Positions 24,074-28,927 of a DNA stretch of 64,000 nucleotides are shown here, in pieces. This DNA is from an uncultured Curtobacterium sp. (GTDB lineage: Bacteria; Actinomycetota; Actinomycetes; Actinomycetales; Microbacteriaceae): NCBI GenBank assembly GCA_913778205.1, contig CAJYUW010000017.1:1-64000 (forward strand), written 5' to 3'. Every line of letters begins with the position of its first letter. Within the stretch, counting starts at the first letter, position 1. The position numbers were made by a program, and so were the translations under genes. Under the pieces are notes generated by a model. That model had not been told where the DNA came from. It worked only from the letters and a program-made list of their open reading frames with translations, and made no database searches.

Positions 24074-25008
24074 CCCTGCACGTCTGGGGGTCGCTGCCCG
24101 TGTGGGGCATCCTCGCGGTGCTCCTCGTCCGGCTCTGGTTCGTCCGCACCCAGTCGGCGAGCGTGACCTGGCTCACGGTGTGCTGTGCGTTCGTCGCCGT
24201 CGGGCTGTCGATCAACCAGCCGGACGTCCTCGGCGTGCTCGCGGGCGTGACCGGCGTGCCGAACGTCGCGGACGTCGTGGGTCGCTGCCTGATGGTGTGC
24301 GGCATGTTCGCGCTCGCGCAGTCGGTGGAGGCCGCGGCGAGCAGTGCCCGGCTCCTCCGCCCGTCGAGGATCACCGGGTGCGCCGCCGTGCTCGTCACCC
24401 TCGTGGTGCTCTTCTCGCTGATCGACGCCCCGCGGCCGACCGCGCAGTTCATGGTCGTGTACGGCGACCAGCTCCCCACGGCGCTCTACTCGGCGGTCGA
24501 GATGACGTACATCGCTGTCGTGGTCGCACGGTCCGCCCTGGCGGTGCTCGCGTCCTTCCGCCGGGGTGAGCAGATGGGCCGGATGTACTGGCTCTTCGTG
24601 GTCGGCGCGGCCGCGATGGTGCTGCTCGCCGCGATCGCGGTCGCGATGGACGCGGCGCACGTGCTCGGCGCGGCCGACGTCGTCAGCGCCCTGTCGTTCG
24701 TGTACGCCCCGGTGTTCCTCACGTCGATGGTCCTGCTCGCGCTCGGTGCGGCGGGCGGGGTGCTCCCGGACGCGGTCCGCGAGTTCCGCGAGTGGCGGTC
24801 GGCCCGTCGACGCTTCCGGGCGCTCGAACCCGAGCTGCACCGCCTGGAGTCCGCGTCCGGCAACCAGGGGCTGTACTTCACCGTCGTGTGGCAGCGTCGG
24901 CAGTGGCGGAGCCGTCTGCACCGCCTCGCGGTCGAGATCGAGGACCGGGCGCGCGAGGCCGGACTCACCGCACCCTCCACCGAACCGGACCCGTCAGGAG
25001 CGAGATGA
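24070..25008 (+). CDS. MAB_1171c-like polytopic membrane protein
   Basis: MTLHVWGSLPVWGILAVLLVRLWFVRTQSASVTWLTVCCAFVAVGLSINQPDV...; about 7-8 TM then a charged tail ALEPELHRLESASGNQGLYFTVVWQRRQWRSRLHRLAVEIEDR; 4-bp overlaps on both sides. Confidence 0.75.
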   Translation: MTLHVWGSLPVWGILAVLLVRLWFVRTQSASVTWLTVCCAFVAVGLSINQPDVLGVLAGVTGVPNVADVVGRCLMVCGMFALAQSVEAAASSARLLRPSRITGCAAVLVTLVVLFSLIDAPRPTAQFMVVYGDQLPTALYSAVEMTYIAVVVARSALAVLASFRRGEQMGRMYWLFVVGAAAMVLLAAIAVAMDAAHVLGAADVVSALSFVYAPVFLTSMVLLALGAAGGVLPDAVREFREWRSARRRFRALEPELHRLESASGNQGLYFTVVWQRRQWRSRLHRLAVEIEDRAREAGLTAPSTEPDPSGAR

Positions 25009-26105
25009 CCATAGCGACCCGCACCACCGCGATCGGGACGGCGATCGGCGCCGCCGGTACCTTCGGCCTCGGGGCCGTCGTCGCCCGTCGATTGCTGTTC
25101 CCGTCGCCGTACACCGCGACCGCCACCGTCCGGGCGTCGTCCGCCGACGAGGTGGAGTTCGACGCCACCCGCGACACCCGGCTCCCCGGCACCTACCGGA
25201 TCGTCCGCGGCAGCACCTCGGTCCGTGTCGGGGGCGTCGCCGGGCACCGCGACGACGTGGTCCGACGGGCGCTGCTCGACGGACCGGCCCCCGCGACCGG
25301 CGAGTGGACCTGGGACGCGCTCATGCACGACGTCGTCGCCGAGGTGCTCCCCGGCCCGGCGACCGGGCGAGCGAGCGGTCAGGCGACCGAGCGCGCGACC
25401 GGTCGGGCGACCGGGCGCGCGAGCAACCCGGCGACCGGCCAGGCGACCGAGCGCGCGACCGGCCGCGTGGCCGCGACGCACGTCGTCCACGTCCACGGAC
25501 AGTCGCTCGGCCCCCGCCAGGTCCTCCGCGGCATCCCGGTCTGGGAGGCCCTCGGCGCCTCGTCGGAGATCGTCGACACCACGGACCTCCCGCTGCGCTC
25601 GCTCGACGCCGGCGCCGCGGAGCGCATCGTCGAGCGCGTGCGGTCCGCACGGGAGCGCGGCGCCGAGCGGGTCGTCCTGCAGGGCTGGTCGGCCGGCGCG
25701 CTCGCGTGCTCGATCGCCGCGTCCCGGACGTCCGTGGACGGCCTGGTCGGCATCGCACCGCTCCTCGACGTCCGCTCGGCGCTCCGGGGTGCCGTCGGCG
25801 CGTTCCGCCTCCCCCGCTTCGTCGGGAGCGTGGGCGCCCGGATCGCGACGACCCCGACGCTGTCCCGGCTCGCCGGGGCCGCGGTGCCGGTCCGGATCGC
25901 CACCTGGCAGGCGTCGGGGACACCGACACTGCTCGTCCGCTCGACCGCCGACCCGTTCGTCGCGGCAGCCGACGTCTCGGCCGCCGAGCAACGCGGTGCG
26001 ACCGTGGTCAGCTTCCGCACCGCTCCGCACACGCTGGAGTGGAACGAGGACCCCGAGCGCTTCGACGACGCCGTCCGCACCTTCGCCGGGAGCCTCACCG
26101 CCTGA
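25005..26105 (+). CDS. Alpha/beta hydrolase with internal low-complexity repeat
   Basis: MTIATRTTAIGTAIGAAGTFGLGAVVARRLLFPSPY...ERVVLQGWSAGALACSIAASRTSVDGLVGIAPLLDVRSAL...TLLVRSTADPFVAAADV (GWSAG nucleophile elbow). Confidence 0.8.
   Translation: MTIATRTTAIGTAIGAAGTFGLGAVVARRLLFPSPYTATATVRASSADEVEFDATRDTRLPGTYRIVRGSTSVRVGGVAGHRDDVVRRALLDGPAPATGEWTWDALMHDVVAEVLPGPATGRASGQATERATGRATGRASNPATGQATERATGRVAATHVVHVHGQSLGPRQVLRGIPVWEALGASSEIVDTTDLPLRSLDAGAAERIVERVRSARERGAERVVLQGWSAGALACSIAASRTSVDGLVGIAPLLDVRSALRGAVGAFRLPRFVGSVGARIATTPTLSRLAGAAVPVRIATWQASGTPTLLVRSTADPFVAAADVSAAEQRGATVVSFRTAPHTLEWNEDPERFDDAVRTFAGSLTA
25357..25475. repeat. Degenerate 12-18 bp tandem repeats coding GPATGRASGQATERATGRATGRASNPATGQATERATGR
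   Basis: Repeated gcgaccg[ga]gcgcgcgaccgg units within the hydrolase gene. Confidence 0.85.
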
Positions 26106-26115
26106 GCTCCCCGGA

Positions 26116-26224
26116 ACGGGCAACGGCCCCGGTCCGAAGGACCGGGGCCGTCGGCGGCTCGACACGTTGGGGGGAACAGCCGAGCCGCTCACATCCGAGG
26201 AGCTGGGGGGAACGCCTCGGGTGT
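26116..26224 (-). ncRNA. 6C-type structured small RNA
   Basis: Minus strand: CCGAGGcgttCCCCCCagctCCTCGG (26195-26220) then CGGCTCGgctgttCCCCCCaacgtgtCGAGCCG (26155-26187), two stem-loops each with exactly six C in the loop, followed by terminator ACGGCCCCGGTCC-ttc-GGACCGGGGCCGT. Possible -10 TACGGT at 26236-26231. Ends approximate. Confidence 0.85.
26123..26151 (-). terminator. Terminator of the 6C-type RNA (potentially bidirectional, also serving the hydrolase gene)
   Basis: acggccccggtcc-gaa-ggaccggggccgt, 13-bp perfect arms. Confidence 0.8.
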
Positions 26225-26311
26225 GGTTCAACCGTACCGCGCCTCGGCGACGGATGTGGGGAACCATCCGACCGACGTGACGGGATACGGACTGCTGGTG
26301 ACGAGCTCCGC

Positions 26312-26340: not shown

Positions 26341-26428
26341 CAATCCCCCGCGGGCACGATCGGAACGCCCCGCTCAGCGGCTCACATCGCCGCTGCGCGG
26401 GGCGTGCCCGTCAGGGCGTGGTCGCGTC

Positions 26429-28927
26429 CTAGGACTCGATCTCGCCGGCCGTCTCGGCAGCGCCGGTGAGGACCTCCTCGCGACCCGGCTGCCGCCCGGT
26501 CTCGAACTGGAACGCACCGTCGTGGAAGTCGACCTTCACGTGGTCACCGGCGTTGAGCTCACCCTGCAGGATGTGCTCGGACAGCTGGTCCTCGACCTCG
26601 TGCTGCATCGCGCGACGGAGCGGGCGAGCACCCAGGGCCGGGTCGAACCCGACCTTGATGAGCTGCTCCTTGGCGGCGAGCGTCAGCTCCACCGTCATGT
26701 CGCGGTCGAGCAGGCGGTCCGCCAGACGCTTCACGAACAGGTCCACGATCTGCAGCAGCTCGGACTGCGAGAGCTGGGGGAACACGATCGTGTCGTCGAC
26801 GCGGTTGAGGAACTCCGGCTTGAAGTGCTTCTTGAGCTCCTCGTTCACCTTCGAGCGCATGCGGTCGTAGCCGACGCCCGAGTCGCCCTCGATCTGGAAG
26901 CCCACCGGACCACCCGCGATGCCCTGCGAACCGAGGTTCGTGGTCATGATGATGACGGTGTTCTTGAAGTCGACGACGCGGCCCTGACCGTCGGTCAGGC
27001 GGCCTTCCTCGAGCACCTGCAGCAGCGAGTTGAAGATGTCCGGGTGGGCCTTCTCGATCTCGTCGAAGAGGACCACGGAGAACGGCTTGCGACGCACCTT
27101 CTCGGTGAGCTGGCCGCCCTCCTCGAACCCGACGAACCCGGGAGGGGCACCGAAGAGTCGCGAGACCGTGTGCTTCTCACCGAACTCCGACATGTCAAGG
27201 GAGATCAGCGCGCCCTCGTCGTCGAAGAGGAACTCGGCGAGCGCCTTGGCGAGCTCGGTCTTCCCGACGCCCGTGGGGCCGGCGAAGATGAACGAGCCCG
27301 AGGGACGGTTCGGGTCCTTCAGACCGGCACGGGTGCGGCGGATGGTCTTCGAGAGGGCCGAGATGGCCTCCTCCTGTCCGATGACGCGCTCGTGCAGGGC
27401 CTTCTCCATGAAGACGAGCCGCGAGGTCTCCTCCTCCGTGAGCTTGAAGACCGGGATGCCCGTGGCCTGCGCCAGGACCTCGGCGATGATGCCCTCGTCG
27501 ACGGTGCCGGACGCGGCGACGTCACCCGCACGCCACTGCTTCTCGAGGCGGAGACGCTCGCCGAGGAGCTTCTTCTCCTCGTCGCGGAGCGAAGCGGCCT
27601 TCTCGAAGTCCTGCTCCTCGATCGCGGCTTCCTTCGACCCGCGGACCGTCGAGATCTTCTCGTCGAACTCGCGGAGCTCCGGCGGCGCGGACAGGATCGA
27701 CAGGCGGAGGCGTGCGCCGGCCTCGTCGATCAGGTCGATGGCCTTGTCCGGCAGGAAGCGGTCCTGCACGTAGCGGTCCGCGAGGTTCGCCGCGGCGACG
27801 ATCGCGCCGTCGGTGATGGACACCTTGTGGAACGCCTCGTACTTGTCGCGGAGGCCCTTGAGGATGTTGATCGCGTGCGGCAGCGACGGCTCGTTGACCT
27901 GCACCGGCTGGAAGCGGCGCTCGAGTGCGGCGTCCTTCTCGAAGTGCTTGCGGTACTCGTCGAGCGTGGTGGCACCGATGGTCTGGAGCTCACCGCGGGC
28001 GAGGAGCGGCTTGAGGATCGACGCGGCGTCGATCGCACCCTCGGCAGCACCGGCCCCGACGAGCGTGTGGATCTCGTCGATGAAGACGATGATGTCGCCG
28101 CGGGTGCGGATCTCCTTCGTGACCTTCTTGAGGCGCTCCTCGAAGTCACCGCGGTAGCGGGAGCCGGCGATGAGCGACCCGAGGTCGAGCGAGTAGAGCT
28201 GCTTGTCCTTCAGCGTCTCCGGGACGTCGCCCTTGACGATCGCCTGGGCGAGGCCCTCGACGACCGCGGTCTTGCCGACACCAGGCTCACCGATCAGGAC
28301 GGGGTTGTTCTTGGAGCGACGGGAGAGGATCTGCATGACCCGCTCCATCTCCTTCTCGCGCCCGATGACCGGGTCGAGCTTGGCGTCGCGGGCGGCCTGG
28401 GTGAGGTTCCGACCGAACTGGTCGAGGACCTGCGACCCCTGCTGCGCGTTCTGCTGGGTCTCGCCGCCGACGGCGACCGCTTCCTTGCCCTGGTAGCCGG
28501 ACAGGAGCTGGATGACCTGCTGACGGACGCGGTTGAGGTCCGCGCCGAGCTTGACGAGCACCTGGGCGGCGACGCCCTCGCCCTCGCGGATGAGGCCGAG
28601 GAGGATGTGCTCGGTGCCGATGTAGTTGTGGCCGAGCTGCAGCGCCTCGCGCAGGGACAGCTCGAGCACCTTCTTGGCGCGCGGCGTGAACGGGATGTGC
28701 CCGGTCGGCTGCTGCTGCCCCTGCCCGATGATGTCCTGGACCTGCTCGCGGACGGCATCGAGCGAGATGCCGAGCGACTCCAGCGCCTTGGCGGCGACGC
28801 CCTCTCCCTCGTGGATGAGGCCGAGGAGGATGTGCTCGGTGCCGATGTAGTTGTGGTTGAGCATCTTCGCTTCTTCTTGAGCGAGGACGACAACACGACG
28901 GGCTCGGTCGGTGAATCTCTCGAACAT
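26429..28927 (-). CDS. clpC: ATP-dependent Clp protease ATP-binding subunit ClpC
   Basis: [49 protein letters not shown]...; two AAA+ modules ([31 protein letters not shown]). Confidence 0.98.

What the first reader, a model, noticed from the sequence alone, without database searches (positions are those of the whole stretch)
26116..26224. 6C-type structured sRNA next to clpC
On the minus strand two consecutive hairpins each display exactly CCCCCC in the loop (CCGAGG..CCCCCC..CCTCGG and CGGCTCG..CCCCCC..CGAGCCG), followed by a 13-bp terminator hairpin. This matches the published description of the actinobacterial 6C RNA motif (two stem-loops with runs of about six C, often near a terminator; B11 in mycobacteria). 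Unannotated RNA genes like this are usually missed, and its place between an operon end and clpC is of regulatory interest.
Basis: partly seen in the sequence, partly recalled or inferred. Interest (0 to 1): 0.75.

Follow-up and report, generated by a model that had tools for sequence, protein, structure and literature searches.

The report
Second 6C-type small RNA beside clpC
Many Curtobacterium species carry, just after the clpC protease gene, a second and unannotated copy of a known type of actinobacterial small RNA that displays two six-cytosine loops and probably silences G-rich ribosome-binding sites; the RNA type is known, but this extra copy, and a related one on large plasmids of the genus, appear not to have been described.

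Summary
On the minus strand at 26225-26121 lie two hairpins with exact CCCCCC loops and a third, terminator-like hairpin, preceded by a conserved promoter-like element. The genome is Curtobacterium. Rfam's 6C model hits the locus at only 38.9 bits (cut-off 47). The same genome has a better 6C match (45.2 bits) between tadA and acs; that locus is the canonical 6C gene of Microbacteriaceae (model match in 150/200 sampled genomes, nearly always single copy). The window RNA is therefore a second, 6C-like paralogue, not the canonical 6C. It occurs in 21 of 41 Curtobacterium genomes and sits between clpC and a convergent hydrolase-like gene in all 14 where I checked. No copy was seen after clpC in the few other genera read. 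Stems show compensatory changes; the loops are almost invariant. Unlike the canonical Curtobacterium copy, whose second C6 hairpin is the terminator, it has two C6 hairpins plus a separate terminator. Most likely it is a trans-acting sRNA whose C6 loops pair with G-rich ribosome-binding sites, as shown for B11 in mycobacteria. A related three-C6-loop RNA lies upstream of a ParB-like gene on Curtobacterium plasmids. No expression data exist.

The parts
26231..26236 (-). -10-like element TACGGT of a promoter-like sequence
   Evidence: G-rich + TACNGT motif (GGGGGTACNGT in most relatives, GCGCGGTACGGT in the window clade) conserved upstream of hairpin 1 in 25 aligned clpC-linked loci; the canonical copy has TGGGGTACAGT. 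No conserved -35; transcription start (~26224) is inferred.
26190..26225 (-). hairpin 1, hexaloop CCCCCC at 26205-26210, closed by GUU/AGC
   Evidence: double changes that keep pairing in the outer stem
26154..26188 (-). hairpin 2, hexaloop CCCCCC at 26169-26174, closed by GUU/AAC
   Evidence: inner three pairs invariant, double changes further out
26121..26153 (-). hairpin 3, terminator-like, UUC loop; C5-C7 loop in some relatives
   Evidence: all 22 aligned relatives keep the GGCCCCGGUC/GACCGGGGCC stem, an outer pair covaries C-G/U-A; no clear U-tract
26121..26225 (-). whole 6C-like sRNA (clpC-linked copy, 'class B')
   Evidence: Rfam RF01066 38.9 bits over 26118-26189; own models R1 57.1 bits and R2 94.8 bits; R1 and R2 were built with this sequence
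26366..26404 (-). terminator-like hairpin directly after clpC
   Evidence: long hairpin in the fold of 26428-26240; species without the sRNA also have a hairpin right after clpC
26429..28927 (-). clpC (832 aa), upstream neighbour on the same strand
   Evidence: full-length match to ClpC1 and ClpC structures
24792..26105 (+). convergent gene, alpha/beta-hydrolase-like (437 aa)
   Evidence: no Pfam/NCBIfam hit; adjacent in all 14 checked genomes with the sRNA, in 1 of 19 without it; the hydrolase label rests on a GWSAG nucleophile-elbow-like motif seen by eye

Best explanation
The locus encodes an independently transcribed, trans-acting small RNA of about 104 nt, a Curtobacterium-specific second copy of the 6C type. 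Two stem-loops hold up CCCCCC hexaloops, each closed by a 3-bp GUU/AAC-type stem above a one-base mismatch, and a third hairpin ends transcription. The loops pair with runs of five to six G at ribosome-binding sites of several mRNAs and block translation; two equivalent loops give redundancy or two-site binding. The canonical 6C at tadA/acs displays the same loops, so the copies probably share targets and differ mainly in when and how much they are made. Shown here: structure, conservation, synteny, copy number. Shown elsewhere: the pairing mechanism, for B11 in mycobacteria. Inferred here: expression, targets, mode of action.
For: Two adjacent C6 hairpins never arose in 200 Markov versions of the window. 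Of 22 distinct relatives 21 fold independently with both C loops open; 10 of 35 consensus pairs show double changes that keep pairing. Promoter-like element conserved. clpC has its own terminator-like hairpin. No same-strand gene follows, so it is not a leader. Canonical copy identified by synteny and present across the family. For B11 of M. abscessus, either C-rich loop suffices to repress eccB4, whose 5' UTR has six G (PMC10470900). One candidate target: a NarL-type response regulator whose RBS is GGGGGG in 8 of 12 species with this sRNA and in 0 of 6 without a second copy (the G029 site is); loop-target duplex about -20 kcal/mol, shuffled targets mean -8.
Against: No transcript evidence. 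Rfam score below the curated cut-off. No U-tract after hairpin 3. No -35 hexamer is conserved. G6 motifs before ATG are only about twice as frequent as the reversed control (32 vs 17 in this genome), and the exact 8-mer TGGGGGGA before ATG is absent in this genome, so targets are poorly resolved. The target correlation is confounded by phylogeny and was chosen after the fact; canonical 6C loops pair with it equally well.
Confidence: 0.72

Rival explanations
1. It is a 3'-UTR-derived RNA cut out of the clpC mRNA, so that sRNA levels follow clpC expression.
For: Same strand as clpC and only about 205 nt downstream.
Against: A strong terminator-like hairpin follows clpC and a promoter-like element is conserved directly upstream of hairpin 1; the spacing from the clpC stop to the first C6 varies widely, about 128-403 nt.
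Confidence: 0.1
2. It is mainly a bidirectional terminator region for clpC and the convergent hydrolase-like gene; the C6 loops are a by-product.
For: Hairpin 3 lies 16 nt after the stop codon of the convergent gene and is the most conserved stem.
Against: The C6 loops and their 3-bp closing stems are almost invariant while the outer stems change; a terminator does not need two upstream C6 hairpins; half of the genus does without them.
Confidence: 0.08
3. It is a sponge or decoy rather than a direct mRNA regulator: identical C loops compete with the canonical 6C for the same G-rich partners or for a C-tract-binding protein.
For: Same loop letters in both copies; copies vary in number between species.
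Against: No partner protein known; the C-loop/G-run pairing of the Mtb 6C is reported as independent of RNA chaperones (title of Mai et al. 2019 as cited in PMC10470900).
Confidence: 0.07

Closest known systems
6C RNA (Rfam RF01066), including B11 of mycobacteria and cgb_03605 of C. glutamicum
   Same: Two stem-loops with runs of six (or eight) C, ~100 nt, actinobacterial, intergenic; the Rfam model aligns end to end at 38.9 bits.
   Different: Below the curated cut-off of 47; located at clpC, not at tadA/acs; the match uses hairpin 2 and the terminator, hairpin 1 is additional; the terminator here has a UUC loop.
Canonical 6C of the same genome (G000:C46:159458-159533, L001)
   Same: Same GUU/AUU-CCCCCC-AA(C/U) loops, same kind of promoter-like element (GGGGTACAGT), both found by one model built from both (R1).
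   Different: Its second C6 hairpin is itself the terminator (GGCGGCACC..GGUGCCGCC-UCUUCU); a conserved 5' hairpin-like segment precedes it; present family-wide.
Extra 6C copies in some mycobacteria (PMC9569102)
   Same: Additional 6C genes away from the regular locus, some on plasmids, similar predicted folds.
   Different: Different order; there they are reported in a few clades, here a positionally fixed copy is kept by about half of a genus.
sX13 of Xanthomonas (RF02232)
   Same: sRNA with C-rich loops; weak Rfam match (18.6 bits, cut-off 50; PMC3771888 listed).
   Different: Unrelated by score; different phylum; at most an analogue of mechanism.

Membership tests
6C RNA (RF01066) | Two consecutive stem-loops each displaying about six C | tested here: met
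6C RNA (RF01066) | Covariance-model score at or above the Rfam gathering score (47 bits) | tested here: not met
   38.9 bits. The canonical Curtobacterium copies also stay below it (45.2 here; the two Curtobacterium matches above the cut-off, L009 and L010, are clpC-linked copies), so the cut-off does not separate members well in this family
6C RNA (RF01066) | Compensatory changes in both stems | tested here: met
   for hairpin 1 and the terminator (hairpin 2 of the window clade is misaligned there)
6C RNA (RF01066) | Second C6 hairpin near or part of a terminator | tested here: inconclusive
   A separate third hairpin is the terminator-like element; no U-tract
6C RNA (RF01066) | Orthologous locus of the canonical gene (tadA/acs neighbourhood in Microbacteriaceae) | tested here: not met
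   It lies at clpC; the canonical locus is elsewhere in the genome
6C RNA (RF01066) | Discrete ~100-nt transcript | not testable with these tools
   Needs Northern blot or RNA-seq
6C RNA (RF01066) | C-loop pairing with G-rich ribosome-binding sites | not testable with these tools
   Only a candidate target from sequence

The most novel reading that the evidence does not exclude
Curtobacterium runs a small family of interchangeable C6-loop sRNAs: a universal chromosomal one (tadA/acs), a second one fixed between clpC and a hydrolase-like gene in half of the species, and a three-loop one kept by its large plasmids upstream of a ParB-like gene. The plasmid copy may let the plasmid tap into, or compete with, the host's G-rich-RBS regulon.
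Probability: 0.3. Interest if true: 0.65.

Novelty: new variant of a known kind. Interest (0 to 1): 0.45.

Why it matters
6C RNA is one of the few sRNAs conserved across Actinobacteria, yet its targets outside mycobacteria and corynebacteria are largely unknown. Here Rfam's cut-off misses the canonical gene in Curtobacterium, and a model built from this genus recovers a 6C RNA in 150 of 200 Microbacteriaceae. A lineage with one, two or three related copies is a natural experiment on why a C-loop sRNA is duplicated and whether the copies divide the regulon by timing of expression.

Tried and rejected
Whole-window Rfam search at gathering scores: only tRNAs. Other Rfam families at the locus (CcsR1, sX13, mir-3160 and others) are far below their cut-offs and rejected. 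Further 6C-like hits of this genome (C39, C31, C24 with Rfam; C23, C28, C1, C47, C20 with model R1) have E 0.3-8; L003, which I read, lacks paired C6 loops, and the rest were left as chance-level. An exact 8-base target search (TGGGGGGA before ATG) gave no site in this genome; GGGGGG before ATG gave 32 sites against 17 for the control, with one recurrent, plausible orthologue among three species. Joint RNAalifold of canonical and clpC-linked copies recovered only hairpin 2 because hairpin 1 differs in sequence, and hairpin 2 of the window clade is misaligned in A4; I recounted pairs anchored on the loops. Model R2 in the order found, outside Curtobacterium, five weak hits in two families; the one whose locus I had read (G053, L013) is a two-hairpin 6C aligned to hairpins 2-3. 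By blastn the window RNA has no relative on plasmids or phages beyond short terminator-stem matches.

Full report
WHAT IS THERE. On the minus strand, just downstream of clpC, 26225-26121 forms three consecutive hairpins. The first two have exact CCCCCC hexaloops closed by a 3-bp GUU/A(A/G)C stem above a small mismatch or bulge; the third is a 13-15 bp G+C-rich hairpin with a UUC loop and no clear U-tract. Randomised windows gave no adjacent pair of C6 hairpins, and the fold is far more stable than shuffles (z -4.55).

WHICH ORGANISM AND NEIGHBOURS. The convergent neighbour (24792-26105 +) is found in named genomes almost only in Curtobacterium, with C. luteum the closest. The upstream gene is clpC by full-length match to ClpC1; a terminator-like hairpin lies at 26404-26366, directly after it. 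No gene on the minus strand follows the RNA within the convergent intergenic region, so a leader (cis) role is unlikely although Rfam labels 6C 'Cis-reg'.

TWO 6C GENES, NOT ONE. Rfam's 6C model scores 38.9 bits here (cut-off 47) and 45.2 bits at another place in the same genome. That other place (L001) lies between a tadA/cpaF-like ATPase gene and acs. The same neighbourhood holds the best 6C-like match in almost all other Microbacteriaceae loci checked, which makes it the canonical gene of this family. From memory, not tested, mycobacterial B11 also lies near a tadA-like gene. A model built from both classes (R1) gives only two convincing matches in this genome, at least one strong match in all 41 Curtobacterium genomes, and a match in 150 of 200 Microbacteriaceae, nearly always one. 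R1 contains the window's own sequence, so its scores for these two loci are by construction; the counts in other genera are not.

DISTRIBUTION OF THE clpC COPY. By my count, 21 of 41 Curtobacterium genomes have this class. In the 14 of them examined by tblastn it lies between clpC and the convergent hydrolase-like gene, and named relatives show the same arrangement. Among the genomes without it (20, four of them with an unlinked extra copy) clpC was found in 19 and none showed a C6 pair downstream (two of the 19 are not informative, a contig end and a poor assembly). The hydrolase-like gene is adjacent in only one of those 19. RNA and hydrolase-like gene thus tend to occur together; G023 (L150) and the record 'Microbacteriaceae bacterium PS02332' (L075) have the gene without the RNA. 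The four clpC loci of other genera that I read show no such RNA after clpC.

CONSERVATION PATTERN. Among 22-25 distinct clpC-linked copies the loop and its closing stem are almost invariant, while outer stems vary with compensation: for example hairpin 2 C-G to U-A, hairpin 1 G-C to C-G. In 21 of 22 both C loops are open in the MFE fold. In one search the covariation score exceeded all shuffles and slid versions, with the caveat that relatedness inflates this and that hairpin 2 of the window clade is misaligned there. A motif GGGGGTACNGT precedes hairpin 1 in most species and TGGGGTACAGT precedes the canonical copy; in the window clade it reads GCGCGGTACGGT. I read it as a -10-type element. 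In one subclade the third hairpin also has a C5-C7 loop (L009, L010, L018, L081, L083).

HOW IT LIKELY WORKS. In M. abscessus either C-rich loop of B11 is enough to repress eccB4, whose 5' UTR has six G (PMC10470900). The same display of C6 here supports the same mechanism. A search for GGGGGG 3-10 nt before ATG in three species gave one recurrent, plausible orthologue, a NarL-type response regulator. Its RBS has six G in 8 of 12 examined species with the clpC copy, five G in the other four, and six G in none of six species without a second copy (two of these have five G); one species with a different extra copy also has six. This is post hoc and follows phylogeny, so it is a lead only. Both 6C copies would pair with it equally well.

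COMPARISON AND NOVELTY. It works like 6C and by structure belongs with it, but it misses Rfam's score cut-off and is not at the canonical locus; I therefore call it a 6C-like paralogue. Whether it arose by duplication or transfer was not resolved. Extra 6C genes are reported in some mycobacteria, also on plasmids (PMC9569102). I found no report for Curtobacterium in the held library, which lacks most subscription papers.

RELATED PLASMID RNA. In other Curtobacterium genomes a three-C6-loop version lies on plasmid-sized contigs; 22 PLSDB plasmid records, all Curtobacterium, match a query holding it, 19 over at least 80% of the query. In pCspYC1 it lies in a gap about 0.8 kb before a gene annotated as ParB N-terminal domain protein; the corresponding proteins of four genomes are 58-87% identical and match a ParB/RepB/Spo0J partition-protein model below its cut-off.

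Noticed in passing
L128:6090-6400 (-), L137, L135, L136, L129; L318:6001-6309: A 6C-like RNA with three C6 loops on large Curtobacterium plasmids (22 PLSDB records, only this genus) and once on the large chromosomal contig (L129), unannotated or overlapped by hypothetical ORFs, upstream of a ParB-like gene.
   Followed up: partly
L127, L130, L133 (G019, G030:C2, G065): Further scattered 6C-like copies at other places in genomes without the clpC copy.
   Followed up: partly
L001 and 150/200 Microbacteriaceae genomes: The Rfam 6C (RF01066) gathering score misses the canonical 6C gene of Curtobacterium; a local model finds a 6C RNA in 75% of sampled Microbacteriaceae genomes.
   Followed up: yes
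L292 (G000:C33:216-935) and orthologues L293-L309: NarL-type response-regulator gene with a G5-G6 ribosome-binding site that tracks presence of the second 6C copy; candidate target, confounded by phylogeny.
   Followed up: partly
clpC 3' ends in L138-L156: Conserved long terminator-like inverted repeat (such as ACAGACGGGAGGCCCGGTGCCAGCTGGCACCGGGCCTCCCGTCTGT) after clpC in Curtobacterium species lacking the sRNA.
   Followed up: no
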